Source of the DNA: Calothrix membranacea FACHB-236
GTDB taxonomy: Bacteria; Cyanobacteriota; Cyanobacteriia; Cyanobacteriales; Nostocaceae
Assembly: GCF_014696315.1 (NCBI RefSeq)
Contig: NZ_JACJPX010000059.1
Span: 1 to 51,679, forward strand
DNA length: 51,679 nt
Reading direction: 5' to 3'
Below are positions 27,166 to 42,613 of this stretch, piece by piece. Each line of letters opens with the position of its first letter. Within the stretch, counting starts at the first letter, position 1. A program made the position numbers and the translations under genes. The notes beneath the pieces are model-generated. The model saw nothing but the letters and a program-made list of their open reading frames with translations. It was not told the origin of the DNA and did no database searches.

Positions 27166-27426
27166 ATGGAAAAGCGCAAAAGCAGCTACCACGGTCATTT
27201 AGAAATTAATAGCCTAATTGATGATGCTGTCAATAATGCGATCGCCCGCCGGAATGAAAGCTTAAATTCTGAAGATGCTTTGTTAGATGTATCTGCTGAA
27301 GAAGCTAAAAATGTTGCAGGTGGTTTAACATCTGCAAAAACAATTGGTTTAATTGCTAAACCCCCGATTATTCTCGGACGCATCATTACAACAGGCATCA
27401 TCATAGCTCCCACTGAAACTATTTAG
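27166..27426 (+). CDS. Candidate RiPP precursor, double-glycine leader (not Nif11)
   Basis: An 86-residue peptide. The start at 27166 is set by AAGGA eight bases upstream. Residues 1-53 look like a leader: charged, with LLDVSAEEAKNVAGG ending at a Gly-Gly pair (52-53) that a C39 peptidase would cleave. The 33-residue core is hydrophobic and Thr/Ile/Pro-rich (IAKPPIILGRIITTGIIIAP) and has no Cys, Tyr or Trp. The leader is not Nif11-like. It opens a run of four plus-strand genes followed by the radical SAM gene, so it is probably another substrate of this island. Which enzyme acts on it is not evident. Confidence 0.7.
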   Translation: MEKRKSSYHGHLEINSLIDDAVNNAIARRNESLNSEDALLDVSAEEAKNVAGGLTSAKTIGLIAKPPIILGRIITTGIIIAPTETI

Positions 27427-27457
27427 CCAGAAGATTTTTGTTGCTGAGGCTAAATTG

Positions 27458-27895
27458 ATGGAAAATATTGCTGTTGATAAAACTACACTTTGCCCCAGCG
27501 CTAGACCTGAATCTGAGGATAGTGTAGTTTTCGGCATCATCAGTGGAACAGTGGCAGAACCCCGTGTGGCTTATTTAAAACAGCCACAACAACTCACAGA
27601 TGAACTGATAGCTAAAGCTAGTCCCGTTACACCATCTGAAATTTTTCGTACAGCTGCACCTTGTGCCACAAAAGGTTGTCAGCATTTTGATGGACAAGAT
27701 TGTCGTTTAGCTACACGCATTGTAGAAAAATTACCTGCGATCGCACAAGAATTACCCCCTTGTTCTATCCGCCGAGATTGTCGGTGGTGGAAGCAGGAAG
27801 GTAAGGCTGCTTGTATGCGTTGTCCGCAAGTAATTACAGATAACTATAATGCCTCTGAACTAGCAATTGAAGTAGCAATGCCAACTGCTATTTAA
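27458..27895 (+). CDS. Cys-rich protein of the RiPP cluster, possible Fe-S protein
   Basis: A 145-residue soluble protein of unknown function. The start is at the ATG at 27458, preceded by GAGG. The C-terminal half carries seven cysteines spaced C-x4-C-x7-C, then C-x5-C-x10-C-x2-C (PCATKGCQHFDGQDC and ending CMRCPQV), plus one near residue 11. This spacing suggests one or two iron-sulfur clusters or zinc. The motif CRWWKQEGKAACMRCP is distinctive. It lies between precursor genes and 19 bp ahead of the first Nif11 precursor, so it is probably cotranscribed with them. A role as electron donor or partner of the radical SAM enzyme is a guess based on position. Confidence 0.7.
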   Translation: MENIAVDKTTLCPSARPESEDSVVFGIISGTVAEPRVAYLKQPQQLTDELIAKASPVTPSEIFRTAAPCATKGCQHFDGQDCRLATRIVEKLPAIAQELPPCSIRRDCRWWKQEGKAACMRCPQVITDNYNASELAIEVAMPTAI

Positions 27896-27914
27896 GTAAT
27901 CTCAGGAGCAGATT

Positions 27915-28223
27915 ATGTCTTTAGAAAATGTTAGAGCTTTCTATGAAAGACTAGCATCTGATGAAGCTTTTCGTACCCAAATTCAAGAGGTGGAAAGCAA
28001 AGAAGCTGGTAGAGAAATTTTGCACAATGCTGGTTTTAATTTTACCAAAGAAGAGTTTGAAGAATACACGGCTCAATTATTAGAATCCGAAAATGAACTG
28101 CAAGATGTAGATGCCACAGAACTTGCATCTGTTGTGGGCGGATTAGTTGGGTTGTATCCCAGACTTTTCTTAATTTATGGTGCGCCTAGTGGTCTTTGGA
28201 ATTACACCAATATCTTGTTTTAA
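27915..28223 (+). CDS. Nif11-leader RiPP precursor 1 (one IYG motif)
   Basis: A 102-residue precursor. Residues 1-76 are a Nif11-type leader (MSLENVRAFYERLASDEAFR, then AGFNFTKEEFEEY, ending ELASVVGG with Gly75-Gly76). The 26-residue core holds LYP (80-82) and IYG (87-89), then a Trp and a further Tyr. Nif11-leader peptides are substrates of RiPP enzymes and are cleaved after Gly-Gly. In PlpX-type splicease systems the enzyme removes tyramine from an X-Tyr-Gly site, leaving an alpha-keto-beta-amino acid. IYG is such a site. A strong AGGAG precedes the start. It is a paralogue of the next gene, with near-identical leader and different core. Confidence 0.85.
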   Translation: MSLENVRAFYERLASDEAFRTQIQEVESKEAGREILHNAGFNFTKEEFEEYTAQLLESENELQDVDATELASVVGGLVGLYPRLFLIYGAPSGLWNYTNILF

Positions 28224-28288
28224 TCAAGCAAAATCTGCTTTTTAACTGGAATGACTTGTAAATAGCAATTACTGCAAGGAATTAGTTT

Positions 28289-28639
28289 ATGTCTTTAGAA
28301 AATGTCAGAGACTTTTACAAAAAGCTCGCAAATGATGAGGCTTTTCGTAATCAAATGCAAGCTGTTGAAAGTAAAGATGAATGTAGCCAAGTTGTCAAGA
28401 ATGCTGGCTTTAATTTCACTCAAGAAGAGTTTGAAGAATATACAACTCAATTAATAGAATCAAACGCTAACGAAAACGATCTGCAAGATTTAGGAGAAAA
28501 AGAATTAGAAGCAGTTTTTGGTGGCATTTTGGGCAAGCCTATTATACAGCCTTTATATGGAGTGATTGTGTGGCCTCCTATTAAATGGCCGCCTATTGTA
28601 CAGCCTTTATATGGGGTTGTGACAACCACTGATATATAA
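28289..28639 (+). CDS. Nif11-leader RiPP precursor 2 (two PLYG motifs)
   Basis: A 116-residue precursor. The leader (1-79, ending EAVFGG) is Nif11-type and very like that of precursor 1. The 37-residue core contains an internal repeat: QPLYGVIVWPP then WPPIVQPLYGVV, placing two LYG sites at residues 89-91 and 107-109, 18 residues apart. Two identical cleavage contexts suggest two keto-beta-leucine residues in one product if the neighbouring radical SAM enzyme is a splicease. AAGGA precedes the start. A palindromic repeat and a weak hairpin lie between this gene and the enzyme gene. Confidence 0.88.
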   Translation: MSLENVRDFYKKLANDEAFRNQMQAVESKDECSQVVKNAGFNFTQEEFEEYTTQLIESNANENDLQDLGEKELEAVFGGILGKPIIQPLYGVIVWPPIKWPPIVQPLYGVVTTTDI

Positions 28640-28641
28640 CG

Positions 28642-28685
28642 TTGTGGACTGTTGACTGTTGACTGCTAACTGTTAACAGTCCACA
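28642..28685. repeat. Palindromic short tandem repeat after precursor 2
   Basis: Ends TTGTGGACTGTT and AACAGTCCACAA are complementary; the interior is GACTGTTGACTG-type heptamers. It starts 2 bp after the precursor stop and could form a hairpin that protects the precursor transcript. Confidence 0.75.
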
Positions 28686-28704
28686 ATTTTAGATTATGGA
28701 TTAA

Positions 28705-28753
28705 CCTCTCCTCGTAAAGAAGAGGCTTAAATATTGAATTTTTTTGTTTTTTT
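28705..28753 (+). terminator. Possible attenuator between precursor and enzyme genes
   Basis: A short stem CCTCT/AGAGG (28705-28725), then an AT-rich stretch with a T-run (28738-28753). The stem is only five pairs, so this is weak. A leaky stop here would explain how precursor is made in excess of the enzyme, as is common in RiPP operons. Confidence 0.3.
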
Positions 28754-28885
28754 CTTCGTAAACCCAGAGGCTTGAAACCATTTTTTGGATTCTAGATTGA
28801 GATTTAATCCAAAATCTAAAATCCAAAATTGTCTCGGTCAACAGTTAACAATTTTTATAAAACTTAATTGAGGGAGTTGACTCTA

Positions 28886-30142
28886 ATGGCCTATCGCAGA
28901 ATTAGTTATGCGGTTTGGGAAATTACCTTAAAGTGCAACCTTGCTTGTCAGCACTGTGGTTCTCGCGCTGGTCATACAAGAACACAAGAATTATCTACCG
29001 CCGAAGCCTTGGATTTAGTTAAACAAATGGCGGACGTTGGGATTACAGAAGTAACATTAATTGGTGGTGAAGCTTTTCTGCGTCCTGATTGGCTAGAGAT
29101 TGCCAAAGCCATTAACAAAGCTGGAATGCTTTGTGGGATGACCACTGGGGGCTATGGTATTACTCTAGACACAGCACACAAAATGAAGGAAGCAGGAATT
29201 AATGTAGTTTCTGTGTCTGTTGATGGCTTAGAGACAACTCACGATCGCATCCGTGGTAGACAAGGTTCATGGCAATGGGCATTTAAAACCATGAGTCACC
29301 TCAAGCAAGCAGGAATTTCCTTTGGTTGCAATACCCAAATTAATCGCCTATCTGCACCAGAATTTCCCCGTATTTATGAATATCTGCGCGATGCGGGAAT
29401 CTTTGCTTGGCAAATTCAATTAACTGTACCAATGGGGAATGCAGCCGATAATAATGAAATTTTACTGCAACCCTATGAATTACTGGATGTATACCCCATG
29501 ATTGCCCGTGTTGCTCAACGAGCCAAGCGAGAAGGTGTACAGTTACAGCCAGGAAATAATATCGGCTACTATGGCCCCTATGAGCGATTTTTACGGGGTG
29601 GTGATGCTTGGTCGTTTTGGCAAGGTTGCAGTGCGGGATTGTCGGCTTTAGGTATTGAAGCGGATGGCGCAATTAAAGGTTGTCCCTCACTGCCAACTAC
29701 AGCTTACACTGGGGGAAATATCCGCGATCGCTCTTTACGCAGCATCATTGAAGAAACCGAAGAACTGCGGTTTAACTTAGGCGCTGGTACTCCCAAAGGT
29801 ACAGAACATTTATGGGGTTTCTGCAAAACTTGCGAATTTGCTGAACTCTGTCGAGGTGGTTGCAGTTGGACTGCACATGTCTTTTTTGATAAGCGAGGTA
29901 ACAATCCCTACTGTCATCATCGCGCCCTAACTCAACAAAAACAAGGCATCCGCGAGAGAGTATTTCTGCAACGCCAAGCAGACGGAAATCCTTTTGATAA
30001 TGGAGAGTTTGCTTTGATTGAGGAACCAATTAATCATCCTTGGCCAGAAAACGATCCATTACATTTTACTGCTGACCGCATTCAATGGCCAGAAGGTTGG
30101 CAAGAAGAATTAGAGTTAGTCCCATCTTTGGCAAAAGTTTAA
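28886..30142 (+). CDS. Radical SAM/SPASM RiPP enzyme, candidate splicease
   Basis: A 418-residue radical SAM enzyme. The cluster motif is CNLACQHC (Cys17, Cys21, Cys24). SAM-site features follow (TLIGGEAFLRPDW, VSVDGLETTHDRIRG). A SPASM region carries auxiliary-cluster cysteines (CSAGLSALGIEADGAIKGCPS, then FCKTCEFAELCRGGCSW and YCHH). This is the layout of Nif11-peptide radical SAM maturases, the group that includes PlpX, which excises tyramine at X-Tyr-Gly. The match of Tyr-Gly motifs in both Nif11 precursors supports that role here; epimerase or cross-linking chemistry cannot be ruled out. The start is the ATG at 28886 with GAGGGAG upstream. Confidence 0.88.
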   Translation: MAYRRISYAVWEITLKCNLACQHCGSRAGHTRTQELSTAEALDLVKQMADVGITEVTLIGGEAFLRPDWLEIAKAINKAGMLCGMTTGGYGITLDTAHKMKEAGINVVSVSVDGLETTHDRIRGRQGSWQWAFKTMSHLKQAGISFGCNTQINRLSAPEFPRIYEYLRDAGIFAWQIQLTVPMGNAADNNEILLQPYELLDVYPMIARVAQRAKREGVQLQPGNNIGYYGPYERFLRGGDAWSFWQGCSAGLSALGIEADGAIKGCPSLPTTAYTGGNIRDRSLRSIIEETEELRFNLGAGTPKGTEHLWGFCKTCEFAELCRGGCSWTAHVFFDKRGNNPYCHHRALTQQKQGIRERVFLQRQADGNPFDNGEFALIEEPINHPWPENDPLHFTADRIQWPEGWQEELELVPSLAKV

Positions 30143-30297
30143 CTCATCGAAGGCGGAGGGAAACCCACTCTCTTTAACACCGTTAACTGATGACTGTTAA
30201 CCGTCAACCGTCAACGTGAAATCCTATCCCCGGAGGCTGGGATGAGCTTAACTTGTTTTTTATCCGTTAATACAGATTAAATTGCCATACAAATAAT

Positions 30298-30474
30298 ATG
30301 CCCACTGATTATTTACCTCCAGCAGAATCATCTCCTAATCAATCTCCAGATGAGTTAGAATCTCAAGAACCTTTGTTACCTCGTTTAGCTTGGAATAGTC
30401 AAATCGCTTATTTACGAGTTGTTTTTAAAGCAAAAAAAGCTTTAGACCGCATTGAGAAGGAAGCATTTGGTTGA
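30298..30474 (+). CDS. Small protein downstream of the radical SAM gene
   Basis: A 58-residue open frame that reads MPTDYLPPAESSPNQSPDE, then LPRLAWNSQIAYLRVVFKAK and ends KALDRIEKEAFG. The first half is acidic and Pro-rich, the second an amphipathic, probably helical, segment. No domain is recognised. Splicease clusters are reported to contain a small partner protein (PlpY); this could be one by position only. A GTTAACCGTCAACCG-type repeat separates it from the enzyme gene. No good ribosome-binding site is seen. Confidence 0.5.
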   Translation: MPTDYLPPAESSPNQSPDELESQEPLLPRLAWNSQIAYLRVVFKAKKALDRIEKEAFG

Positions 30475-30607
30475 TTGTTGACGGTTCAAAGTTAACGGTC
30501 ATAGAATTTGAAAATTTGCGGAAAGTTGAGCTAGTGAGCCCTTACACCCATGAAAATCTCTCTTTCCAGTCAACTGTCAAAACTATTCACTGTCTATTTT
30601 CTCTGTA

Positions 30608-30913
30608 GCAACTTCTGCTTTATCTAAAGCAACTTTTGCTTTAACGTTTACAGGTTTTGCTCAAGCTAAAGCAGCTTTTGCTTTAACGTTTCCGTGTTTC
30701 GCGCAAGCCAGAGCAGCTTTTATTTTAACATTTCCGTGTTTCGCGCAAGCCAGAGCAGCTTTTGTTTTAACGTTTACAGGTTTTGCTCAAGCTAAAGCAG
30801 CTTTTGCTTTAACGTTTCCGTGTTTCGCGCAAGCTAAAGCAGCTTTTGCTTTAACGTTTCCGTGTTTCGCGCAAGCCAGAGCAGCTTTTGCTTTGACATT
30901 TTCGTGTTTCGCT
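30608..30913. repeat. Array of seven 42-bp tandem repeats
   Basis: A 21-bp half unit (30608-30628) is followed by seven contiguous 42-bp units starting at 30629, 30671, 30713, 30755, 30797, 30839 and 30881 (the last degenerate). Two unit types occur, differing in a block near the middle. All lengths are multiples of three. One plus-strand frame (AALTFPCFAQA-like) is open throughout but lacks a start. The minus-strand frame reads AKHGNVKAKAALA-like units and ends with a natural-looking C-terminus (KAEVATEKIDSE, stop near 30590) but has TGA stops in one unit type. It is probably a decayed repeat-protein gene on the minus strand. Confidence 0.8.
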
Positions 30914-30948
30914 GATCAAATCAGCCCCCAATGAACACCAATAAATTG

Positions 30949-31683
30949 TTAATGCACAGTTGAATTGTGCAGCCAAACTTGAAAAAGAGATTCTAAAATA
31001 TTTTCCCTAGCTGAATTAGTTAACTCAGGATGTAACCACTTTTCAACTCTTAAAATGTGATGCCCAAGTTTGGTAGATACTGGCCCAATTAATTCTCCTG
31101 CTACAGTATCGGTAATGGCTTGCACAATTTCTGGCATCAATTCTACTAGCAATCGCACGCCCACAAAACCGCCATTTTCTTGAGATTGTTTACCTTTTGA
31201 ATACTCTACAGCCAGGGCAGCAAAAGAAGTATTTTCTTGTTCAATTAAATGCACAATTTTTACAGCATCAGACAAATCTGGTACTAATATCTGAGATAGC
31301 ATAACTCGTCGATAGCGATCGCGGTTATTCATGTAATCAGCATCGACTTCCATTCCAAAGAGATATTCTTTCAGCTTTTTGGTCAGCAGTTCAATTTTGA
31401 TCCCTAAAGACCAATCTTCCACAGAAATTCGCTGCTGAGATAGCCAGTTGAGGGTTTCTGATGCGCCCAAAAGCTTATATTCTAAACGAAATGCATCTCC
31501 AGCTCCTTGTAATTCTGCATCGCTAACTGTAATTTCAAACTTCTCGCAAGCCCTTAAGACTATGCTATCTCGTTCTGCTTTAGCACCAATATCAGCAATT
31601 TGGTGAGTACGGCGCAGGTAAGCCAAAATTTCTGCATCTGTCGCCGGGGAAATTGATGAAGCTTTTCTCTGGCTTTGTACCAT
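30949..31683 (-). CDS. Parvulin-type peptidyl-prolyl isomerase
   Basis: A 244-residue protein of the SurA/PpiC type. The N-terminal helical part is chaperone-like; the parvulin domain covers about residues 130-225, with RVMLSQILVPDLSDAVKIV, FAALAVEYSKGKQSQENGG, and LIGPVSTKLGHHILRVEKW. There is no signal peptide, so it should be cytosolic. Such isomerases often accompany HlyD/C39 ABC exporters in cyanobacterial peptide clusters. Here it may help fold or present precursor peptides. AAGGA precedes the start. It is the last intact gene of a long minus-strand run. A paralogue lies at 36818-37585. Confidence 0.85.
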   Translation of the reverse strand: MVQSQRKASSISPATDAEILAYLRRTHQIADIGAKAERDSIVLRACEKFEITVSDAELQGAGDAFRLEYKLLGASETLNWLSQQRISVEDWSLGIKIELLTKKLKEYLFGMEVDADYMNNRDRYRRVMLSQILVPDLSDAVKIVHLIEQENTSFAALAVEYSKGKQSQENGGFVGVRLLVELMPEIVQAITDTVAGELIGPVSTKLGHHILRVEKWLHPELTNSARENILESLFQVWLHNSTVH

Positions 31684-31703
31684 GAATTTATCCTTTGTTG
31701 AAG

Positions 31704-31786
31704 GTTGACTGTTGACTGTTAACAGGAAACCAAAATCGGCTAAACTTTCTGCAAAATCTAAAATCCAAAATCTAAAATCTAAAATT
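31704..31786. repeat. Two adjacent short tandem repeats
   Basis: A GTTGACTGTTGACTGTTAAC-type repeat (31704-31725) is followed by four copies of a heptamer-like AAAATCT/AAAATCC repeat (about 31750-31786). The AAAATCC class also occurs at about 28800-28830. Confidence 0.65.
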
Positions 31787-31813
31787 GTAAAGGGTGGGTA
31801 ACCCTCGACTCTA

Positions 31814-32827
31814 CTATCGGTAAATCAACTTTTCTGGGGGAATCTCACCAATTTTTAGGCAATCGCGGTGTAAATCTCCGTAGAGATTGAGGTATTCTAT
31901 TTCATCAGTAGTTAGTTTACCTTGTTGTACAGATGCGATCGCGGCATCAATTTCTCCTCGATGCTGCAAACCCATAAGACAAACATCAACACAGTTTTGA
32001 GATAAGGAGTAGCGGTATAAATCTGGTACATGAGGTCGCCAGCAATTATCAGGTAAACTAGCTGGAGGTTCCCACAATGCACCAGAATGGGAACCTGTAG
32101 ATTTAAAAGTAACAATCCCCGGACGCTGGGAATCTGCGGCGTTTAAGCAATTAAAAACTTGATGTTGCGCCGAACGGTGAGCTACATTATGACGCACCAT
32201 CACCACATCTAACAAAGGGCTATTTAACCACTGATGCGCTAAATTGAGGTCATGGAAAGAAGCCCCAATATAGCGGACTGCTCCCATTTTTTTCAACCGT
32301 TCCGAAACACCAAATACTCTTTCAATTGTGCGCTGATAAACGCTATTTGCACCTCTTAAATCTGGAGAAAGCTGTAAGCAATTATTCAAGGCTGAATGAT
32401 CATTTTCTCCCACCCAACCCCAATGTAGGATATCAATGTAATCAATGCCCAATTCTTGAAACTGGTCGAATAAAGCTGAAAGGATGATTTCTGGATTTTT
32501 AATATAAGTGACTGTTGCTAGTACAACTTTCTCCCGCACCGAAGAACCACGTCCACAAAGTTGACGCAAAGCATCAGCCATTGAACGGTACAAAAAATGA
32601 TGTAAATCGCTAGAGTAAAAAAAATAATTAATTCCTTGCTCAAAAGCGTAAAGCGTATCTTCGCTAGAAATCGCCCCTCCACCACCTAAACCCAAACAAC
32701 TTACTGTTAAATCAGTTCGCCCTAGTTGGCGATAAAAAGGAATATCTGATTCCGGGAATTTTGCGATTAATGGTTGTGATTCGCCTAGCAGAGTTGTTGA
32801 TTGTCCAGATAAATCGGCTATACGCAT
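31814..32827 (-). CDS. Aldo/keto reductase family protein
   Basis: A 337-residue NADPH-type oxidoreductase with the (beta/alpha)8 pattern: YRQLGRTDLTVSCLGLGGGG at the start, DYIDILHWGWVGE, then MGAVRYIGASFHDLNLA and CVDVCLMGLQHRGEIDAAI near the end. The start at 32827 (MRIADLSGQ) is chosen because the region further upstream is not protein-like. The usual catalytic tetrad Tyr seems to lie in INYFFYSSDLHH. The neighbours are RiPP tailoring genes, so it may reduce a keto or dehydro group on a peptide. This is inference from context. In class V lanthipeptides a different enzyme family reduces dehydroalanine to D-Ala. Confidence 0.8.
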   Translation of the reverse strand: MRIADLSGQSTTLLGESQPLIAKFPESDIPFYRQLGRTDLTVSCLGLGGGGAISSEDTLYAFEQGINYFFYSSDLHHFLYRSMADALRQLCGRGSSVREKVVLATVTYIKNPEIILSALFDQFQELGIDYIDILHWGWVGENDHSALNNCLQLSPDLRGANSVYQRTIERVFGVSERLKKMGAVRYIGASFHDLNLAHQWLNSPLLDVVMVRHNVAHRSAQHQVFNCLNAADSQRPGIVTFKSTGSHSGALWEPPASLPDNCWRPHVPDLYRYSLSQNCVDVCLMGLQHRGEIDAAIASVQQGKLTTDEIEYLNLYGDLHRDCLKIGEIPPEKLIYR

Positions 32828-32988
32828 AATTTCACTGAGGTATAAATCAATACTTTTATTTAAAAATAAATTGACAACAAAACAATAATTTTGGAGGGGG
32901 TTTGGGGGACGCAACCGTCACCCAATCGGGGGTTTGGGGGATTCTCCCCCAATTGAGTTAGCTGTTTCCACAACTGACAAATCAATCA

Positions 32989-34155
32989 CTAATTATCTTC
33001 TCTGAACTGTATTGGGGTATAAATGTCCTCTGAGTTAGCGTTTAAGTAAGGATTTGCTAATTTCACCCCTAAAGCCGCAAATTCTTCTAAAATTAAATTG
33101 ATTCTCGTATCTGCGGACTCATCACCTAATCGTTGCGCTGCTAACAACCCATTGCTGATAATCTGACAGCGATGCATGCCAAAACTTTCTTGCTCCGAAA
33201 ATTTATGATTTGGTTCTTCTGCAAGTCCTAATCCTGGTGCGAGAAACTTGGTAAATAAAGGTATTTCTCTGCGGAAATGGCAGCGCTGTTGAGCATACAC
33301 TGTATGTAATACTTGGTGCACTAATTCATAATGGCAGCGCTCAAAATAGAGAACACCAGAATCAAAGCGGGTATAGTCTGCTGGGTTGTAGAGAACTTTA
33401 AAAGAAAAGACGATTGCAGCTGCATTCAGTTGCTCGGTTAAACTTTTCATGACAGGCGGTGCGCCTTCAGGAGCTAAGTTAAAATAAACTCGCACTAGCT
33501 GAGAATGCTTGCTGTGCTGTCGGTTACTATCTGTTCCCCCATTCCCAACAGCTACATAAAAGCCATTTTGAATCAGATTTTTTGGCAAGCGAATCGCCAC
33601 AATATCGCCAATATTAGCAGATTGTTCTGGGCATTGCAGATGGCGATCGCGGTTAATATGTAGTTTCAATCCGCCTTTCGTCACAACCAGACTACCATCA
33701 ATTTCTCGCTTTAATACCTGCCAACCGGGGTCAAAATAACCTGCGCCTGTATTACTTTCATGTAAGCGCTGATAAAATTCCCAATCTACACCCAGTAAAG
33801 TATTATTTTCTAAATTTTGTTGCAACAACAAATTGCTGGAACTTTCTCCTAAAGCTAAAGTATTTCGCAGGGAACCATTATAATAAATGCCGTAGATAAA
33901 GCTGCGTAATTGCAGACTTAAATACTTAGTTTGCAGTTCTAAAGGTACATTTTGAAACCGCGTCACCACTTCTTCTGGTAACTCTAAAGGCTTGTATGCA
34001 GGATGACAGATAGAGAAATTAGATTGAAACTGAATATTGCGTGCAATGTCTTGAATTGCATTCAGTGCATTCTGGGGAGCATCAACTAATAATCGATGTT
34101 GCAGAGAATCTAGTAATTGCATAAAAAATTTGGTTAAATAACAAGATTCAGACAT
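32989..34155 (-). CDS. HopA1-family protein, probable Ser/Thr dehydratase lyase partner
   Basis: A 388-residue HopA1 (T3SS effector HopA1) family protein. Typical segments are seen: YGIYYNGSLRN, TGAGYFDPGW, the repeated basic stretch LHINRDRHLQ, RVYFNLAPEGAPPVMKSLT, FSFKVLYNPADYTRFDSGVL and the late APGLGLAEEPNH with SFGMHRCQI. In class V lanthipeptides (LxmY) and thioamitides (TvaD), HopA1 proteins eliminate phosphate from Ser/Thr phosphorylated by an APH-like kinase. The kinase gene here lies 45 bp upstream on the same strand, so both halves of such a pair are present. The start at 34155 is the first ATG; an ATG at 34122 is an alternative. Confidence 0.88.
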   Translation of the reverse strand: MSESCYLTKFFMQLLDSLQHRLLVDAPQNALNAIQDIARNIQFQSNFSICHPAYKPLELPEEVVTRFQNVPLELQTKYLSLQLRSFIYGIYYNGSLRNTLALGESSSNLLLQQNLENNTLLGVDWEFYQRLHESNTGAGYFDPGWQVLKREIDGSLVVTKGGLKLHINRDRHLQCPEQSANIGDIVAIRLPKNLIQNGFYVAVGNGGTDSNRQHSKHSQLVRVYFNLAPEGAPPVMKSLTEQLNAAAIVFSFKVLYNPADYTRFDSGVLYFERCHYELVHQVLHTVYAQQRCHFRREIPLFTKFLAPGLGLAEEPNHKFSEQESFGMHRCQIISNGLLAAQRLGDESADTRINLILEEFAALGVKLANPYLNANSEDIYTPIQFREDN

Positions 34156-34200
34156 CAATCAACTTGGGATTTTTAAGGGTAAAATTATCCAATCCCAAAT

Positions 34201-35385
34201 CTACAATTTTAAATCTAAAATTCTTGGAGAATGGCTTGCTTGCATCAATTCCGATTCTGTCATACCAAACACCGTTGATATCGCTTGTTCTGGACGACAC
34301 AGCAAAGATTTGGCAACTTGCAACATACAAATACCCATATTGCCAAAGGATTTTTGATATTGAATCATTGCCTGAATCTGTTGAATTAAAGCCAATCCAG
34401 CAAACTGAATAGCAAGTTTTAAAAAGTCTGGACGATGCTCTATAATTTCTGGAAATTTCCGAAAATAAGCTTTAATAAAAGCTGTAATTGAAGGTTGGAG
34501 ATATTCTAAAGGTACTATAGCTAGGCGCAACGCTTCTTGAATATCTAGAGATTGGCTAATTACTAAACTACTCAGCCATATTTGCAGATAGCTAGCAATC
34601 ATGGTTCCCAAATCATAAGCAGGATCTCCCCAAGCAGAGCGTTCCCAGTCTATGATCCGAATTGTACCCGCACTATCTAAGGATTCCTCCCAGCCATTAC
34701 GCAGTAAAATGTTATTTAACTTCAAGTCATTGTGAGTTAAACAGCAAGGCTTATAAGCTTGAGAAAGTTGTGCTATTCCTTGACCAAGACTGTCATAACG
34801 CTGGTAAAGTACAAAAAACTTGAGAGCATCTGCAGGAACCAAACCAAATATTTCTGGTTCAACGCGCTCTAAACCCAGGGTAAAATTAGGAGATGGTAAA
34901 TTTGCTTGCTCACCCAAACTATCAACAAGAAATTCCTGGTATTTTTGATTATTAATGGTGGTGCGATGTACAGTTGCTAAGATTCCGGCAATTAAGGTAG
35001 CAACTTCAGGCGGAAAAATATTTGTTTTGATGTAAAAATCGTTTAAATCACGATAATCACTCAGGTAATTGAAAACAATGATTGAATCATAAGCATTAAA
35101 ATGTACAGCTTCCGAAAGCGACGAACGAAGACATCTCAACTCAGGAAATTTTTGTAGTAACTCTTGAATGCGCCATTCCTTAACAAACTCACCAGCAGTT
35201 TTTCCATCTGGGGTGCGTCGTTCTTGCTTAACTAAAAGCTGAGAGCCATTCTGCCACTTTAATAATAAATTAAAGTTTTTCGCAACCTTAATTTCAATAC
35301 TGCTGGGTGGTTTTTCTCGGTGACAGAGTTTGTGTGTAACTAAATAATCAAAAACGTTTTGAGAACTTAAAGAAAATGTCATCAT
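34201..35385 (-). CDS. APH-like kinase, probable RiPP Ser/Thr kinase (LxmK/TvaC-like)
   Basis: A 394-residue protein of the aminoglycoside phosphotransferase/choline kinase fold. The catalytic loop CLTHNDLKLNNILL places Asp220 as base and Asn225 as metal ligand; the second metal site is IRIIDWERSAWGDPAYDLG (Asp246). The N-lobe Lys is probably in LLVKQERRTPDGK. Paired with the HopA1 gene, it matches the kinase half of class V lanthipeptide and thioamitide dehydratases, which phosphorylates Ser/Thr of the precursor. It starts 7 bp after the stop of the small membrane protein gene, so the genes form one transcript. Confidence 0.85.
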   Translation of the reverse strand: MMTFSLSSQNVFDYLVTHKLCHREKPPSSIEIKVAKNFNLLLKWQNGSQLLVKQERRTPDGKTAGEFVKEWRIQELLQKFPELRCLRSSLSEAVHFNAYDSIIVFNYLSDYRDLNDFYIKTNIFPPEVATLIAGILATVHRTTINNQKYQEFLVDSLGEQANLPSPNFTLGLERVEPEIFGLVPADALKFFVLYQRYDSLGQGIAQLSQAYKPCCLTHNDLKLNNILLRNGWEESLDSAGTIRIIDWERSAWGDPAYDLGTMIASYLQIWLSSLVISQSLDIQEALRLAIVPLEYLQPSITAFIKAYFRKFPEIIEHRPDFLKLAIQFAGLALIQQIQAMIQYQKSFGNMGICMLQVAKSLLCRPEQAISTVFGMTESELMQASHSPRILDLKL

Positions 35386-35392
35386 TTATTCT

Positions 35393-35647
35393 CTATCTAG
35401 CAACGTAATCTCTGTGTAACTGAAGCAAAAATAAACTCACAAAACCAATCATTGTAGCCCAAGCCAAAATCACATCTGGTCGGTTCAAATTGCTCATATT
35501 AGAAGAACCAACTTTATTAACTAGAAATGTTGCCGATCCATAGCATAGCCACACACCAGCAGCTAGATAGTCAGATAATATTAAAAATGTCATACCTATA
35601 AGTAAAGCAACCACAGACATAACAGAAGGAAAGTCATTGAAATTCAT
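35393..35647 (-). CDS. Small membrane protein, possible immunity protein
   Basis: An 84-residue protein with three hydrophobic segments (VMSVVALLIGMTFLILSDYL, AAGVWLCYGSATFLV, VILAWATMIGFVSLFLLQL). The second of two adjacent ATGs is chosen because a strong GGAGG stands five bases before it. No family is recognised. Its place between the Cys-free precursors and the kinase gene, and its membrane nature, fit an immunity or transport accessory role, but this is inference. Confidence 0.65.
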   Translation of the reverse strand: MNFNDFPSVMSVVALLIGMTFLILSDYLAAGVWLCYGSATFLVNKVGSSNMSNLNRPDVILAWATMIGFVSLFLLQLHRDYVAR

Positions 35648-35757
35648 CATAACCTCCGCGCAAGTTAAGGCTAAATATCGAGAAAAGCAATCATCACTCT
35701 CAAAACAAGATAAACTATAGTAATCATCAATGGTTCGTAAAAGCTTGCATAAAGGTT

Positions 35758-35793
35758 TGTTAACTGTTAACCGTCAACCGTCAACAGTCAACA
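35758..35793. repeat. Short tandem repeat upstream of the small membrane protein gene
   Basis: GTTAACTGTTAACCGTCAAC-type heptamers, about 36 bp, in the gap between the membrane protein gene and the precursor at 35868. Same family as the repeat at 2661. Confidence 0.75.
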
Positions 35794-35867
35794 AACTTAA
35801 ATCAGATTGCTATAGTAAATGAACAGACAATTTTTTTGATGTATTACTGTCTATTCAATTAAATTTT

Positions 35868-36083
35868 TTAGAAAAACTTGTTCTTAAGTTCAGTAGCGAT
35901 TTTACTCAAGTTGTAGCTTAGTACAAAAGCACCGCTAACTGCAAGAGAGCCAGCAACAGTTGGAGTGATACCACCTTTAGCAGCATCTAACTCATCATGA
36001 GAAAGCTCATTGAGATAAGTTTCATCATCAAAAAATAGCTCAGAACCAGCTACTCTGATATCTTGAATGTTAATTATTGACAT
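35868..36083 (-). CDS. Double-glycine precursor peptide B, Cys-free core
   Basis: A 71-residue peptide. The leader (1-38) contains the block VAGSELFFDDETYLNELSHD and ends AAKGG. The 33-residue core has four Ser and three Thr, no Cys, and an amphipathic basic tail (KIATELKNKFF). GGAG precedes the start. The leader shares the pattern G-S-(D/E)-L-F-x-D-x-E with precursor A, so both should be recognised by the same enzymes or exporter. It lies just ahead of the membrane protein, kinase and HopA1 genes. Without Cys it cannot form lanthionine, so the expected changes are dehydrated Ser/Thr. It could also be an unmodified class II bacteriocin. Confidence 0.85.
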   Translation of the reverse strand: MSIINIQDIRVAGSELFFDDETYLNELSHDELDAAKGGITPTVAGSLAVSGAFVLSYNLSKIATELKNKFF

Positions 36084-36147
36084 GATTTTTCTCCGTTATC
36101 TTGAGTGATTTAATTTGAGGGATAATTTGGTTGAGAGTCTATCTCAA

Positions 36148-36351
36148 TTACCAATAAATGATGGCACCAACAATACCACCAGCAACAGCAGCACCAATAA
36201 ACCACTTAGTAGCAATAGTAGTAATTAATGGTGATGCTCCACCGTTGATTTCAGCGAGTTCGCTATCAGTCAATGCATCCATAAAGCTCTCAGCATCCAT
36301 GAATAAATCAGAGCCAAGTGGACGAAGATTAGAAACTGTAATGGAAGCCAT
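36148..36351 (-). CDS. Double-glycine precursor peptide A, Cys-free core with glycine zipper
   Basis: A 67-residue peptide. The leader (1-38) reads LRPLGSDLFMDAESFMDAL and ends AEINGG. The 29-residue core starts ASPLITTIATKW and continues as a glycine-zipper membrane helix (FIGAAVAGGIVGAIIYW). It has one Ser and three Thr, all within ten residues of the cleavage site, and no Cys. AGGAG precedes the start. Together with precursor B, 64 bp downstream, it could form a two-peptide product. It opens the minus-strand modification operon. Confidence 0.87.
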   Translation of the reverse strand: MASITVSNLRPLGSDLFMDAESFMDALTDSELAEINGGASPLITTIATKWFIGAAVAGGIVGAIIYW

Positions 36352-36817: not shown

Positions 36818-37585
36818 TCATTTACTGAGTGGAAATGGAGTCTGTACACCCGGAATCAACACATCCACTTCTACTTGCTGAATTTGTTGTTTTAGCCATT
36901 CATTAAATAAATCTAAGAGTATCTGATAACGCAACTTATTATCTAATTCAGTTTTCAGAATTTCCTCAACTAAAATTAGATGTACTCCTTGAGAGGTAAT
37001 GATTGGTTTTAGAACTTGAGGAGGAGTAGCAGCAAAAACAGCAGCAGAAATTTCTGCACTCAAATCTTGGCGACGCACTAACCCGCAATATCCTCCCTTA
37101 CGCCGTAACTCTGTATCTTGAATATATTTATGCGCCACATCATAATAACTCATTTCACCTTCTTGAATAAGGTAGAAAAGTTCTAATGCTAAATCTTCAT
37201 CATCTAAGACAAATTCATAAATAACAGCACCGGTATAAGCTAGTTGATGTTCAAAATAATAAGGTTCAACTTTATTAGCTAAGAGGCTGGTAGTTAACTT
37301 GCCAGAAATCACAGTACCATATACTATTTCTTCAAAATCATCGAGAGAAAGACCATGTTTTTCTAACCACAACCAAGTCTCATCTGCACTATCAAGATGA
37401 TTACTTAACCTAATTTGATCCGCCACCTTTTGCAATTCTTCAACCTCTACTGTGAGACCAGCTGCTTCCGCAGCAGCTATAATCACCTTGCGGCTGACAA
37501 TCTGCTCAATGATTTCGGGTATTTTGCAAGATAGCTTAACTTGATGCAAAATATCTTCGCTAGTAATAGTAATGGTTTGCGACAT
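36818..37585 (-). CDS. Parvulin-type peptidyl-prolyl isomerase, exporter-linked
   Basis: A 255-residue SurA/PpiC-type protein. The N-terminal helical part (ILHQVKLSCKIPEIIEQIVS) precedes a parvulin-like region of about residues 120-215 with YYDVAHKYIQDTELRRKGGY, CGLVRRQDLSAEISAAVF and LKPIITSQGVHLILVEEIL. No signal peptide. It is a distant paralogue of the protein at 30949. It lies 57 bp downstream of the HlyD gene on the same strand, an arrangement common for cyanobacterial peptide exporters, and may keep precursors export-ready. AGGA precedes the start. Confidence 0.87.
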   Translation of the reverse strand: MSQTITITSEDILHQVKLSCKIPEIIEQIVSRKVIIAAAEAAGLTVEVEELQKVADQIRLSNHLDSADETWLWLEKHGLSLDDFEEIVYGTVISGKLTTSLLANKVEPYYFEHQLAYTGAVIYEFVLDDEDLALELFYLIQEGEMSYYDVAHKYIQDTELRRKGGYCGLVRRQDLSAEISAAVFAATPPQVLKPIITSQGVHLILVEEILKTELDNKLRYQILLDLFNEWLKQQIQQVEVDVLIPGVQTPFPLSK

Positions 37586-37641
37586 GGTTTATTCCTATTT
37601 TATTTGTAAATAAAACTCTCAAAATTAGGCGATAGGCAATG

Positions 37642-39171: not shown

Positions 39172-39237
39172 GAGTTTGCTTGCTCAGAATTTTTACATGA
39201 GGATATTAGTAAAAAATGGGCATTGACCACCCTATTT

Positions 39238-41988
39238 TTAAGATACACCTTGCAATTGCTGTTGATTTAGATAAAAGTAATGCCCTCGCTTCGCCATTAG
39301 TTCTGCATGAGTTCCGCTTTCAATTAATATGCCTTTATCTAGTACCAAAATCATATCTGCATTTTGTACAGTAGAAAGGCGATGAGCAATTACTAAAGTA
39401 GTTCTTCCCTTGAGGATTGTATTCAAATTTTGCTGAATAATCCTTTCTGATTCTGTATCTAAATGGGAAGTAGCCTCATCTAATATTAGCAATCGGGGAT
39501 TACCTAATAAGGCTCTAGCAATAGCTATTCGTTGACGTTGTCCACCAGATAATAAGCCGCCACCTTCACCAATTTGGGTTTCATATCCCATTGGTAATTT
39601 CTTAATAAAATCATCAGCACCCGCTAATTTTGCGGCTTCGATAACTTCGGTTAAAGGTACACCGGGATGTCCTAAGCTAATATTTTCGCGAATTGTACCG
39701 CCAAATAAAAAGGTATCTTGGTCAACTACCCCAACTTCTTGGCGTAAGGAACGTAGAGAAATGCTGGTAATATCCTGCCCATCAATTAAAACTTTACCAT
39801 CCGTAGGCGGATATAAGCCTAAAACCAACTTAGAAATAGTTGTTTTCCCAGAGCCACTACGCCCAACTAGCGCTACCATTTGCCCAGGCTTTACTTCAAA
39901 GCTGAGGTTTTCTAAGATATTAATATCACTCTCTGGATGATAGCGAAATGTGACATTTTCAAAGCGAATATTGCCTTGAATATATGGTAAACTTTGCCGT
40001 GCCTGGTGTTGTAAATCTTCCTCTGGTTCAGCATCCAGAACATCATTAATGCGTTCGACTGCAATCACTACTTCCTGGAATTGGTTCCACAATACAATTA
40101 AGCGTTGGAAAGGTGTAATAATATTGCCTAACAGCATATTAAAAGCCACCAACTGCCCAATAGTTAACTGATTTTCAATTACTAAATGTGCGCCAAACCA
40201 TAACAAGGCTGTGGTTACTACTGCTTCAATGGTATTGCTGAAGATTTGCAAGCGATTGCTAATAACTTGCCCGGAAAAGTTAGTTCTAATTTCTTTATTT
40301 AATAACTCTTCCCAATGCCAACGCACTGTATGTTCTACTGCCGTAGCTTTCACAGTCCGGACTCCAGTGAGAGCTTCGATTAAGTAACTACTTTCATTAG
40401 CTACAGCATTAAAGATTTCACGGGAAATTCTTTGTAAAAAAGGCGTGGCAATTAATGCTAATAAAGCAAACGGCGGTACAATTACCAGCACGAGTAACGC
40501 CATCTTCCAACTGTACCAAAACATTAATCCTACATAGATAAATACTGTGAGTAAATCTAGGAAAATGGATAATGCTTCACCAGAAAGAAAGCGTTGAATT
40601 TTTCGGTTTTCTTGGACGCGGGAGATGATATCTCCTACATAACGAGACTCAAAGAAACTTAAGGGTAAGCGCAGGGTATGGCGAATAAAACCAACGATTA
40701 ATGCTAGATCTATGCGATTAGCTGTGTGATCAAGCAGATATTGCCTTAACCCGGTCATCGCTACCCGGAAAAGACTAAAAATCAGCAATCCGATACCGAC
40801 GGCAGTTAATGTGAGTTGCGATCGCTGTACAACTACTCGGTCTAAAATTAACTGGGTAAAAAGTGGTGTAATCAGCCCAAATATCTGAATGAATACCGAA
40901 GCAATAAATACTTCCAGCATTACCAAACCATGAGGCTTGAGTAATTCAAAGAATTGCCAAAAGGGGGTAGAGGTTTCTTTGGCATCTTTGAGCATAGCTG
41001 TGGGTTGTAGCAGCAATGTATAACCAGTCCAGCCAGCTTGAAACTCTGCGTGACTGAGGGTGCGTTGACCAATTCCTGGGTCGGCAACAATGACCTGTTT
41101 CGGGGTAATTTCGTAGACTACGATGTAATGTTTGCCTTCCCAATGAACAATTGCAGGTAATTTTTGCTTGGCTAACTGATTCAGACTCGCCTTGACAGGT
41201 CTAGTTGCAAAGCCTAAGCTTTCCGCCGTTGTTAATAAACCCCGCAACGATGCACCATTGCGGTCTACATTGGCAATATCCCGCAAACGATTGACACTAA
41301 AGCGTTTCCCCCAATAGCGAGACACCATCACCAAACAAGCTGCACCGCAGTCTGAGGCGCTTTGCTGGGCGAAAAATGGATAGCGGCGAGTCACCCGTTG
41401 CCATAAATGCCCAACTTGCTGGGTAGGTTTGGGAAAATAGGCTTTACTAATCTTTTTTTGTGGTGGTTCTGGGGTAGAGATTGCAGAAATAGCTGTTTGA
41501 TGATTTAGAGTTGATGCGTAGGCGTAGCCCGTCGTAGACATCGCAGTTACAGCAAAATTATCTGGTTCTACTTGTAGAGAATTACGAGATAGTGCTTGTT
41601 GCCATAGATGTTCTTGAATTTGGGAATAATTAGCCATCAATCGCTGCAACAATTCACCCGGAACAAAGCACAACTGCAAATTCATCGAAGCTCTAGCAGC
41701 ATAAGATTTTAACTTAGCTTTCGGGAACAAGGTAAATTCCCCAAATGCACTTCCCAACTCCAAAGTCGTAATTAACTCACCTGCTTCATTGAGCAACCTC
41801 ACCTTACCAGCAAGCACAATGTAAATACCAGGTTCAACGTCAGTTCCTTGCCAAAATTTACCCACTTTGGGGTTGATAAATTTAAATTGTGGCAGACAGC
41901 GTTGAAATTCTACCTCGGAAAGCGAATATCCCAAAATATTGCTGAACTGTTCTAGAGACACTAACGGATCTGATAGATTTTGCACCAT
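39238..41988 (-). CDS. cNMP-domain/C39-peptidase ABC exporter
   Basis: A 916-residue peptidase-containing exporter. Residues 1-140 form a cyclic-nucleotide-binding-like domain (GIYIVLAGKVRLLNEAGEL, GSAFGEFTLFP). After a linker comes the C39 peptidase (about 205-330) with catalytic Cys214 in SDCGAACLVM, His287 in GKHYIVVYE and Asp303 in VADPG. The membrane domain spans about 350-620. The nucleotide-binding domain has GRSGSGKTT, LLSGGQRQRIAIARAL and LLILDEATSHLD. C39 domains cut leaders after Gly-Gly, and five such precursors lie in this island. The architecture is like HetC. The linker encodes a dispersed DNA repeat (residues 149-161). It heads the exporter part of the operon. Confidence 0.95.
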   Translation of the reverse strand: MVQNLSDPLVSLEQFSNILGYSLSEVEFQRCLPQFKFINPKVGKFWQGTDVEPGIYIVLAGKVRLLNEAGELITTLELGSAFGEFTLFPKAKLKSYAARASMNLQLCFVPGELLQRLMANYSQIQEHLWQQALSRNSLQVEPDNFAVTAMSTTGYAYASTLNHQTAISAISTPEPPQKKISKAYFPKPTQQVGHLWQRVTRRYPFFAQQSASDCGAACLVMVSRYWGKRFSVNRLRDIANVDRNGASLRGLLTTAESLGFATRPVKASLNQLAKQKLPAIVHWEGKHYIVVYEITPKQVIVADPGIGQRTLSHAEFQAGWTGYTLLLQPTAMLKDAKETSTPFWQFFELLKPHGLVMLEVFIASVFIQIFGLITPLFTQLILDRVVVQRSQLTLTAVGIGLLIFSLFRVAMTGLRQYLLDHTANRIDLALIVGFIRHTLRLPLSFFESRYVGDIISRVQENRKIQRFLSGEALSIFLDLLTVFIYVGLMFWYSWKMALLVLVIVPPFALLALIATPFLQRISREIFNAVANESSYLIEALTGVRTVKATAVEHTVRWHWEELLNKEIRTNFSGQVISNRLQIFSNTIEAVVTTALLWFGAHLVIENQLTIGQLVAFNMLLGNIITPFQRLIVLWNQFQEVVIAVERINDVLDAEPEEDLQHQARQSLPYIQGNIRFENVTFRYHPESDINILENLSFEVKPGQMVALVGRSGSGKTTISKLVLGLYPPTDGKVLIDGQDITSISLRSLRQEVGVVDQDTFLFGGTIRENISLGHPGVPLTEVIEAAKLAGADDFIKKLPMGYETQIGEGGGLLSGGQRQRIAIARALLGNPRLLILDEATSHLDTESERIIQQNLNTILKGRTTLVIAHRLSTVQNADMILVLDKGILIESGTHAELMAKRGHYFYLNQQQLQGVS
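41513..41544. repeat. Dispersed repeat inside the exporter gene
   Basis: GATGCGTAGGCGTAGCCC followed by GTCGTAGACATCGC, a repeat common in Nostoc-type genomes, lies in frame in the linker between the cNMP-like and peptidase domains and encodes roughly AMSTTGYAYAS. It adds residues without breaking the frame. Confidence 0.7.
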
Positions 41989-42613
41989 GAATCTCTGAGT
42001 CTGTTCCTAATTTTGCAAAGTTAAGAGGCAAAAATTCAGCTTTATCTGCTATATTTGCGGCTTTGAGGTCGCCAATTAAAATTTTGGCATTATTGGTTTT
42101 TTCTGCTGTTATATTCTCAGCAATGCTAGCTTTTGGTCGAATTGATAACCCCATTTGCTTCAGCAATCGATTGATGTGATGACCGCTGACTTTAATCCCC
42201 AATTCTTTCGCTAACTGTTGACTCAACCAGTTACCTGTCCAACGCCGAAAAGAATAGCCGTAATCACGAGGGCTATGACTCACAAGTTCTTTTAAACGTT
42301 CTAAATATTCTTCATTTACTGCTTTAGGACGACCAATTGCACAATCTTGCCATTGATGTGCCATTCCAGTACGTGCTATATGCATCCAATGCCTAGCGGT
42401 TGCTGGACAGCATCCCAACGTCTGACAAATTATGGTTTGAGATTTTCCTTCATCTGTCAGTAACATAATTTCAATCCGCTGACGGTAAGATTCAGGTAGA
42501 TTTTCTTGTAAACTCTTTTGCAAAATTTTGCGCTGAAAAGGTGTTAAACATAAACATTTTCCATCAAAGTTACCCGAATATTTAGTGCCAGTTTCTGTTT
42601 GGTAGTACGTCAT
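41882..42613 (-). CDS. Helix-turn-helix protein, possible cluster regulator
   Basis: A 243-residue protein. The N-terminal half has a helix-turn-helix (SQTIICQTLGCCPATARHWM, residues about 58-77), then a second winged-helix-like region resembling the DNA-binding part of IS630-type transposases (YGYSFRRWTGNWLSQQLAKE, then GHHINRLLKQMGLSIR). There is no catalytic DDE domain, so it is a regulator made from a transposase DNA-binding part, or a truncated transposase. Its last 36 codons overlap the exporter gene start by 107 bp in another frame, an unusually long overlap; the true stop may be earlier if a frameshift exists. Position suggests control of the exporter operon. Confidence 0.7.
   Translation of the reverse strand: MTYYQTETGTKYSGNFDGKCLCLTPFQRKILQKSLQENLPESYRQRIEIMLLTDEGKSQTIICQTLGCCPATARHWMHIARTGMAHQWQDCAIGRPKAVNEEYLERLKELVSHSPRDYGYSFRRWTGNWLSQQLAKELGIKVSGHHINRLLKQMGLSIRPKASIAENITAEKTNNAKILIGDLKAANIADKAEFLPLNFAKLGTDSEIHGAKSIRSVSVSRTVQQYFGIFAFRGRISTLSATI

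What the first reader, a model, noticed from the sequence alone, without database searches (positions are those of the whole stretch)
27166..42613. One island with two unrelated RiPP maturation systems and one exporter
Seen: two Nif11 precursors, a third plus-strand Gly-Gly precursor and a radical SAM/SPASM gene lie on the plus strand. Two more Gly-Gly precursors with an APH-like kinase and a HopA1 protein lie on the minus strand. Only one C39 exporter with HlyD is present. Known: radical SAM Nif11 enzymes and kinase/HopA1 pairs each belong to separate RiPP classes. Inference: the island makes at least two product types, or one peptide family is handled by both systems, with shared leader removal. 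I know of no described system combining these two.
Basis: partly seen in the sequence, partly recalled or inferred. Interest (0 to 1): 0.9.

Follow-up and report, generated by a model that had tools for sequence, protein, structure and literature searches.

The report
Composite cyanobacterial peptide island, one exporter
This stretch of a cyanobacterium's genome holds two different peptide-tailoring machines, possibly a third, beside a single exporter, and the same mix recurs in other cyanobacteria, which suggests modular islands that may make and ship several kinds of modified peptide.

Summary

Co-occurrence is real but optional: of 110 examined regions (3.7-30 kb) around this radical SAM, 35 also hold kinase/HopA1 genes, in four families, 25 of them co-directional downstream. 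An AKR-like gene marking part of the kinase modules lies within 10 kb of the radical SAM in 19 of 67 cases (about 0.14 expected).

Each machine keeps its own precursors when the other is absent. Gly-Gly cores are Ser/Thr-rich where kinase/HopA1 is present (18.1% vs 7.4%) while leader Ser+Thr does not differ. This favours separate product lines sharing an exporter over one peptide processed twice. The kinase cassette was exchanged several times. No listing, abstract start or passage seen in eight full-text searches describes the combination. No chemistry was tested. New variant of a known kind, with a possible new RiPP pair (GGP1-CYSY) inside.

The parts
27166..27426 (+). GGP1: Gly-Gly leader peptide, core with KPPIILGRI; precursor-like partner of CYSY
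   Evidence: relatives found by profile; a same-strand GGP1 lies within 1.5 kb of 60 of 63 CYSY genes
27458..27895 (+). CYSY: 145-aa protein with 8 invariant Cys (28 aligned), no Pfam or NCBIfam match at E 0.1
   Evidence: found in 94 of 217 family genomes
27915..28223 (+). Nif11 precursor 1, core with LIYGAP
   Evidence: PF07862 52.7 bits, TIGR03798 59.7 bits
28289..28639 (+). Nif11 precursor 2, core with two PLYGV motifs
   Evidence: PF07862 57.9 bits, TIGR03798 58.3 bits
28886..30142 (+). radical SAM/SPASM peptide maturase, predicted splicease (PlpX-like)
   Evidence: TIGR04103 847.5 bits, cut-off 725; PF04055 and PF13186; CxxxCxxC seen in the translation. ATG start chosen by eye inside an ORF that opens at 28868
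30298..30474 (+). ORF58: small conserved protein directly after the radical SAM, at the PlpY position
   Evidence: relatives within 600 bp downstream on the same strand in 108 of 110 radical SAM regions; alignment
30624..30912 (.). 42-bp tandem repeat (6.9 copies) between the two convergent halves
30949..31683 (-). PpiC-type peptidyl-prolyl isomerase 2 (TIGR04500-like, below cut-off)
   Evidence: PF00639 45.3 bits; TIGR04500 56.8 bits, cut-off 180
31814..32827 (-). AKR-like protein lacking the usual catalytic tetrad
   Evidence: PF00248 30.8 bits; 12 of 12 family members against 8 ordinary AKRs of the same genome; 27 of 27 at three of the positions
32989..34158 (-). HopA1/LanY-like phospho-Ser/Thr lyase; K254, R264, Y271 match the CaoY catalytic spacing
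   Evidence: PF17914 195.3 bits; conservation; CaoY residues from PMC9486802 section 6
34201..35385 (-). APH/LanK-like kinase with HxDxxxxN and IDWE motifs
   Evidence: PF01636 36.9 bits, cut-off 23.2; LxmK model 80.2 bits against cut-off 315; conserved motif
35393..35650 (-). 85-aa membrane protein, candidate immunity protein (inference)
   Evidence: relatives in 8 of 35 two-module, 0 of 75 radical-SAM-only and 1 of 29 kinase-only regions
35868..36083 (-). GGB: Gly-Gly peptide, core 33 aa with 7 Ser/Thr, no Cys
36148..36351 (-). GGA: Gly-Gly peptide, core 29 aa with 4 Ser/Thr, no Cys; class IIb-bacteriocin-like
   Evidence: TIGR03949 25.5 bits, cut-off 21.5
36818..37585 (-). PpiC-type peptidyl-prolyl isomerase 1, next to the exporter
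   Evidence: PF00639 35.3 bits
37642..39171 (-). HlyD-family adaptor
   Evidence: TIGR01843 235.5 bits, cut-off 208.65
39238..41988 (-). C39 peptidase/ABC exporter with N-terminal cNMP-binding domain
   Evidence: PF03412 139.8, PF00664 176.8, PF00005 132.1, PF00027 34.4 bits

Best explanation
The island is a composite, modular RiPP cluster. (1) The radical SAM enzyme with ORF58 splices tyramine out of X-Tyr-Gly sites in the two Nif11 precursors, leaving alpha-keto-beta-amino amides (spliceotides). (2) The APH-like kinase phosphorylates Ser/Thr in the cores of the GGA/GGB pair and the HopA1-like lyase eliminates phosphate, giving dehydrated residues; the AKR-like protein and a PpiC isomerase act on the same line, perhaps reducing or folding it. 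The product is a modified two-peptide bacteriocin-like pair rather than a lanthipeptide, since the cores here have no Cys and no cyclase gene was recognised. (3) GGP1 with CYSY is a third, unknown line. (4) The C39/HlyD exporter cleaves all these Gly-Gly leaders and ships the products. The kinase/HopA1 cassette and its peptides are swapped in and out of the island. Shown: genes, motifs, recurrence, core composition. Inferred: all chemistry, the substrate of each enzyme, shared export.
For: Domains and catalytic motifs. 35 of 110 radical SAM regions carry kinase/HopA1 genes (34 both, 1 HopA1 only; full-length copies of both in 32); 25 co-directional downstream, 2 co-directional upstream, 8 opposite including the window. 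Among 24 co-directional loci with a kinase downstream, the gap from radical SAM to the nearest kinase (ORF58 lies inside it) is 164-738 bp in 18 and up to 2433 bp in the rest. AKR-like genes near this radical SAM in 19 of 67 cases against about 0.14 expected. Nif11 precursors of at least 85 aa: 162 of 171 have YG in the last 60 aa; GGP1 0 of 64 and GGA-type 11 of 121 in the last 40 aa. GGA-type cores: n=161 mean S+T 0.181 where kinase/HopA1 genes are in the region, n=27 mean 0.074 where not (one-sided p 5e-11; by locus 59 vs 16, p 1.6e-7); S+T, then T, then S are the strongest of the residues tested, and leader S+T does not differ (0.165 vs 0.168, p 0.71). 23 of 29 kinase/HopA1 regions without this radical SAM still have GGA-type peptides.
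Against: 75 of 110 radical SAM regions lack kinase/HopA1 genes, 48 of 67 AKR-like genes are not within 10 kb of the radical SAM, and the closest radical SAM relative found by name (L206) has no kinase pair in its 17 kb, so the modules do not need each other. Seven of 35 two-module regions show no HlyD or C39 peptidase domain in the fetched stretch (three of these are 17.6 kb or shorter), and the peptidase domain itself was within reach in only 8 of 35. HopA1 phylogeny shows several separate associations, which fits a hot spot around an exporter as well as functional coupling. The kinase scores far below the LxmK cut-off. The S/T comparison sets different peptides sharing a leader family side by side, rows are related, the negative set has only 27 peptides, and leader Thr and Ser taken singly do differ slightly in opposite directions (p 0.002 and 0.04). 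No expression or mass data exist here.
Confidence: 0.68

Rival explanations
1. Hot-spot neighbours: both RiPP systems are independently drawn to a C39/HlyD/PpiC exporter locus and have no coupling beyond sharing it or lying next to it.
For: HlyD or a C39 peptidase domain is in 28 of 35 two-module, 41 of 75 radical-SAM-only and 15 of 29 kinase-only regions. HopA1 of two-module regions is spread over the tree, at least 5 changes forced by starred branches. The window's HopA1 pairs with L125, while its radical SAM's same-genus kin L106 and L108 carry another HopA1 lineage.
Against: Radical SAM followed by the kinase module on the same strand in 25 of 35; a supported 15-row HopA1 clade sampled only beside the radical SAM.
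Confidence: 0.35
2. One peptide is modified by both systems (for example GGC, or a Nif11 peptide dehydrated as well as spliced).
For: Gene order is operon-like; a conserved peptide GGC (core near ISVIxVPxSEDIFAPSISFI) occurs in 8 of 35 two-module, 0 of 75 radical-SAM-only and 0 of 29 kinase-only regions, in 6 of the 8 between ORF58 and the kinase.
Against: A family-wide search found GGC in 8 of 217 genomes, one of them (G317) beside GGP1-CYSY-kinase-HopA1 with no radical SAM in the 12 kb read. GGC has no YG. Nif11 precursors look alike with and without the kinase pair. No GGC core was found in the window.
Confidence: 0.1
3. GGA/GGB are unmodified class IIb bacteriocins exported by the C39 transporter; kinase and HopA1 act on something else.
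For: GGA reaches the class IIb model TIGR03949 (25.5 bits, cut-off 21.5). Regions without the kinase pair, such as L206, carry small Gly-Gly peptides in the same place.
Against: Those peptides are Ser/Thr-poor; the enrichment is in cores of regions with kinase/HopA1 genes.
Confidence: 0.15

Closest known systems
Spliceotide plp cluster of Pleurocapsa sp. PCC 7319 (PlpX/PlpY splicease; passages of PMC10533398 and PMC11002830)
   Same: SPASM radical SAM, Nif11-leader precursors with XYG motifs, small partner gene next to the radical SAM
   Different: plp also has the epimerase PlpD and nitrile-hydratase-type leaders; here no second radical SAM is among the island proteins, and a GGP1-CYSY pair and a kinase/HopA1 cassette are added. 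PlpY is described as a truncated RRE; ORF58 could not be compared with it
Class V lanthipeptides, cacaoidin CaoK/CaoY (PMC9486802, sections 6 and 7 and passages read)
   Same: APH-like kinase plus HopA1-like lyase side by side; K219/R229/Y236 spacing of CaoY matches K254/R264/Y271
   Different: no Cys in the window's cores, no LanC, LanX or LanD gene recognised in the island; kinase far below the LxmK cut-off; AKR-like and PpiC partners instead
Thioamitide dehydratases (TvaC/TvaD; passage of PMC9486802)
   Same: kinase/HopA1 dehydration of Ser/Thr
   Different: no thioamide-forming genes were recognised among the island proteins; Gly-Gly leaders and C39 export
Class IIb two-peptide bacteriocins (features recalled, model TIGR03949 tested)
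   Same: Gly-Gly leaders, tandem peptide pairs, hydrophobic GxxxG-like cores, C39/HlyD export, small membrane protein nearby
   Different: Ser/Thr-rich cores tied to a kinase/lyase pair

Membership tests
Spliceotide maturation (PlpX type) | radical SAM/SPASM of TIGR04103 | tested here: met
   847.5 bits, cut-off 725. That PlpX (IPR026482) belongs to TIGR04103 is recalled, not tested
Spliceotide maturation (PlpX type) | Nif11- or nitrile-hydratase-leader precursor with X-Tyr-Gly core motif | tested here: met
   both window precursors (IYG; LYG twice); 162 of 171 Nif11 precursors in radical SAM regions
Spliceotide maturation (PlpX type) | PlpY partner adjacent to PlpX | tested here: inconclusive
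   ORF58 within 600 bp downstream in 108 of 110 regions; the PlpY sequence was not at hand for comparison
Spliceotide maturation (PlpX type) | tyramine excision | not testable with these tools
   needs co-expression and mass spectrometry
Class V lanthipeptide | LanK (PF01636) next to LanY (PF17914) | tested here: met
   36.9 bits (cut-off 23.2) and 195.3 bits (cut-off 22.7)
Class V lanthipeptide | kinase reaches the NCBIfam class V LxmK model | tested here: not met
   80.2 bits against 315
Class V lanthipeptide | Cys in the core for (methyl)lanthionine | tested here: not met
   0 Cys in the GGA and GGB cores of the window; elsewhere 41 of 161 GGA-type cores in kinase-bearing regions have Cys, and 11 of 27 in the others
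Class V lanthipeptide | cyclase genes (LanC for Vb; LanX and LanD for Va, passage of PMC12291118) | tested here: not met
   no such family among the Pfam/NCBIfam matches of the island proteins listed in parts; the single APH-like gene is the LanK counterpart
Class IIb bacteriocin | two-peptide Gly-Gly family model TIGR03949 | tested here: inconclusive
   GGA 25.5 bits meets 21.5, GGB 12.6 does not
Aldo/keto reductase | catalytic tetrad Asp/Tyr/Lys/His (recalled) | tested here: not met
   replaced in 12 of 12 family members; in 8 ordinary AKRs of the same genome Asp, Tyr and His stand in 8 of 8 and Lys in 7 of 8

The most novel reading that the evidence does not exclude
The island is a plug-in RiPP platform with three lines behind one exporter: spliceotides, kinase/HopA1-dehydrated two-peptide bacteriocins modified by a tetrad-less AKR-like enzyme, and a new RiPP class in which the 8-Cys protein CYSY acts on GGP1 peptides; the three are released together as a cocktail.
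Probability: 0.28. Interest if true: 0.8.

Novelty: new variant of a known kind. Interest (0 to 1): 0.62.

Why it matters
A recurring composite cluster would show that unrelated RiPP chemistries can be run as exchangeable cassettes on one export platform. That makes product cocktails, and whether spliced and dehydrated peptides act together, directly testable in Nostoc and relatives. It also gives natural with/without pairs (for example L207 against L206) for assigning substrates, a candidate new precursor-enzyme pair (GGP1-CYSY), and a conserved AKR-like RiPP protein that has lost the usual catalytic residues.

Tried and rejected
AlphaFold models of CYSY (mean pLDDT 41.6) and the AKR-like protein (43.7) were too poor; no fold search was run. 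PDB sequence searches gave nothing for the AKR-like protein (E 0.001) or the kinase (E 0.01), and 13 distant radical SAM sequences for the maturase.

GGC was first taken as a peptide confined to two-module regions and so as a possible substrate of both systems. A family-wide search (8 of 217 genomes) found one more copy beside GGP1-CYSY-kinase-HopA1, with no radical SAM in the 12 kb read, so that idea was dropped. One of the eight regions with GGC (L070) holds split kinase-side, HlyD and C39 reading frames and looks decayed, yet is counted among the 35. The two isomerases (PPI1, PPI2) could not be told apart by the iterated profiles and are not counted separately. A first exporter count (29 of 35, 48 of 75, 15 of 29) used a profile that also catches other ABC proteins; it was replaced by the stricter count (28, 41, 15). 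The GGP1 core motif PPx2-4GxI holds in only 35 of 57 GGP1 sequences in radical SAM regions and 1 of 7 elsewhere, so it is a tendency, not a definition. The scan of named genomes (best 80 of 216 kept) did not show Pleurocapsa PCC 7319, so ORF58 was not compared with PlpY. Of 108 radical SAM places in the family, regions of 88 were examined; 20 were not, one a near-duplicate contig and the rest lower in the ranking. In the S/T test peptides without GG/GA at positions 22-50, or with cores under 12 aa, and duplicates were dropped. The 28 chosen kinase-only regions were picked by hand from the stronger HopA1 matches, not at random.
Full report
WHAT IS THERE. The island runs from 27166 to 41988 in a genome of 8.81 Mb (164 contigs). 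Minus strand, in transcription order: C39-ABC exporter, HlyD, PpiC isomerase, the Gly-Gly pair GGA and GGB, an 85-aa membrane protein, APH-like kinase, HopA1-like protein, AKR-like protein and a second PpiC isomerase. One C39 peptidase domain and one HlyD are found in the whole window. A 42-bp tandem repeat (30624-30912) lies where the halves converge.

CATALYTIC INTEGRITY. The kinase has HxDxxxxN and IDWE motifs whose key residues are conserved in at least 93% of 64 homologues. The HopA1-like protein has K254, R264 and Y271, the same spacing as CaoY K219/R229/Y236, in 59, 63 and 59 of 65 homologues, and R223 in 60 of 65, one residue off the CaoY R187 spacing (CaoY residues and mutants read in section 6 of PMC9486802). 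The AKR-like protein has lost the usual tetrad: in 8 ordinary AKRs of the same genome Asp, Tyr and His stand in 8 of 8 and Lys in 7 of 8, whereas 12 of 12 members of this family show FFYSSDLH, ATV or its like and W-G instead (2 further control rows were dropped because the script picked wrong frames). C39, ABC and HlyD domains are present.

DO THE HALVES BELONG TOGETHER? In 243 genomes of the order, HopA1 occurs in 71 and the radical SAM over its cut-off in 24. I examined 110 regions of 3.7 to 30 kb (most 20 kb) around full-length radical SAM genes: 88 from the window's family, out of 108 places found there in 217 genomes, and 22 from other families of the order. Thirty-five carry kinase/HopA1 genes (31 of the 88, 4 of the 22; 34 have both, 32 both at full length), in four families (f1, f8, f18, f33). 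In 25 the module lies downstream on the same strand, in 2 upstream, and in 8, including the window, it is inverted. A partial radical SAM beside the pair (L071) and a decayed one (L072) were not counted. Without choosing by radical SAM, AKR-like genes, which mark part of the kinase modules, lie within 10 kb of this radical SAM in 19 of 67 cases against about 0.14 expected from random placement with 7.5-Mb genomes. But 75 of 110 radical SAM regions lack the pair, and the closest radical SAM relative found by name, Tolypothrix sp. FACHB-123 (95% identity, L206), has none in its 17 kb; small Ser/Thr-poor Gly-Gly peptides stand in its place. The combination is recurrent and facultative.

SEPARATE LINES OR ONE PEPTIDE? 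Nif11 precursors sit with the radical SAM whether or not the kinase pair is there (35 of 35 and 73 of 75 regions), and 162 of 171 have YG in the last 60 residues, mostly LYG or MYG, as in the PlpX/PlpY spliceotide system (passages of PMC10533398 and PMC11002830). GGA-type peptides sit with the kinase pair whether or not this radical SAM is there (35 of 35 and 23 of 29 regions), and profile hits to them also occur in 15 of 75 radical-SAM-only regions. Their cores average 18.1% Ser+Thr (n=161) against 7.4% (n=27) in regions without the pair, p 5e-11 by peptide and 1.6e-7 by locus. No other residue differs as much, and leader Ser+Thr does not differ, though leader Thr and Ser singly do, slightly and in opposite directions. 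Caveats: the rows are related, and the two sets are different cassettes sharing a leader family. In the window the cores hold 4 of 29 and 7 of 33 Ser/Thr and no Cys, so lanthionine rings are not expected here, though 41 of 161 such cores have Cys.

A THIRD MODULE. CYSY has a same-strand GGP1 within 1.5 kb in 60 of 63 cases. It occurs in 94 of 217 family genomes; 58 of 104 places lie within 10 kb of the radical SAM, 2 more near an AKR-like gene, and 44 near neither (HopA1 was not compared there because its listing was cut). In fetched regions it also stands beside the kinase module without this radical SAM (L072, L187, L190, L193, L194, L204, L295). GGP1 has no YG (0 of 64). This looks like an independent precursor-enzyme pair; what CYSY does is unknown.

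EVOLUTION. On the radical SAM tree (111 rows) the kinase label needs 18 changes against a shuffled mean of 30.7. On the HopA1 tree (66 rows) the label 'beside the radical SAM' needs 10 changes, at least 5 forced by well-supported branches. The cassette has been exchanged.

MECHANISM. Most likely: radical SAM plus ORF58 splice Nif11 cores; kinase plus HopA1 dehydrate GGA/GGB; the AKR-like and PpiC proteins finish that line; the C39/HlyD exporter removes all Gly-Gly leaders and exports. Only the genes, motifs, recurrence and composition are shown. All chemistry and the shared export are inference.

KNOWN OR NEW. Each half works like a known system: spliceotide maturation and class V (LanK/LanY) dehydration. 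The kinase half is not filed as a class V lanthipeptide: LxmK cut-off, core Cys and cyclase genes are not met. Eight full-text searches of the held open-access library (three of them listed only part of their hits) showed no title or abstract start that points to the two halves in one cluster. Beyond listings I read sections 6 and 7 and passages of PMC9486802, and passages of PMC10533398, PMC11002830 and PMC12291118; PMC9486802 notes cyanobacterial type-B candidate precursors for LanK/LanY. Other listed papers were not opened and subscription papers are not held, so absence from print is not established.

Noticed in passing
30624-30912: 42-bp tandem repeat, 6.9 copies, between the two convergent halves; short heptamer runs also lie between genes (28643-28674, 35769-35792).
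   Followed up: partly
41882-42613: IS630-type transposase fragment overlapping the start of the C39 gene; possible trace of a rearrangement.
   Followed up: no
31814-32827: AKR-like protein family with the catalytic tetrad replaced yet strongly conserved, in 58 of 217 family genomes.
   Followed up: partly
L068, L070, L106, L108, L119, L124, L131, L135, L295: GGC peptide with a conserved core (near ISVIxVPxSEDIFAPSISFI), in 6 of 8 two-module regions between ORF58 and the kinase; not found in the window.
   Followed up: partly
L206:8811-10366: Ser/Thr-poor Gly-Gly peptides (CPICIPLL... and FIQFVAAFWLGYKIGKEIARLT types) occupy the place of the kinase cassette in the closest radical SAM relative found by name.
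   Followed up: partly
43114-46176: ExeM/NucH-type extracellular nuclease with RTX calcium-binding repeats next to the island, followed by a PhoD phosphatase (46370-47959).
   Followed up: no
G000:C78 (L085), G000:C7 (L098), G000:C68 (L099): The same genome has a second TIGR04103 radical SAM locus and two more kinase/HopA1 pairs, each apart from the other system in the stretch read.
   Followed up: partly
L070: Microseira-type two-module region in which HopA1, AKR-like, HlyD and C39 reading frames are split: a decaying copy.
   Followed up: no
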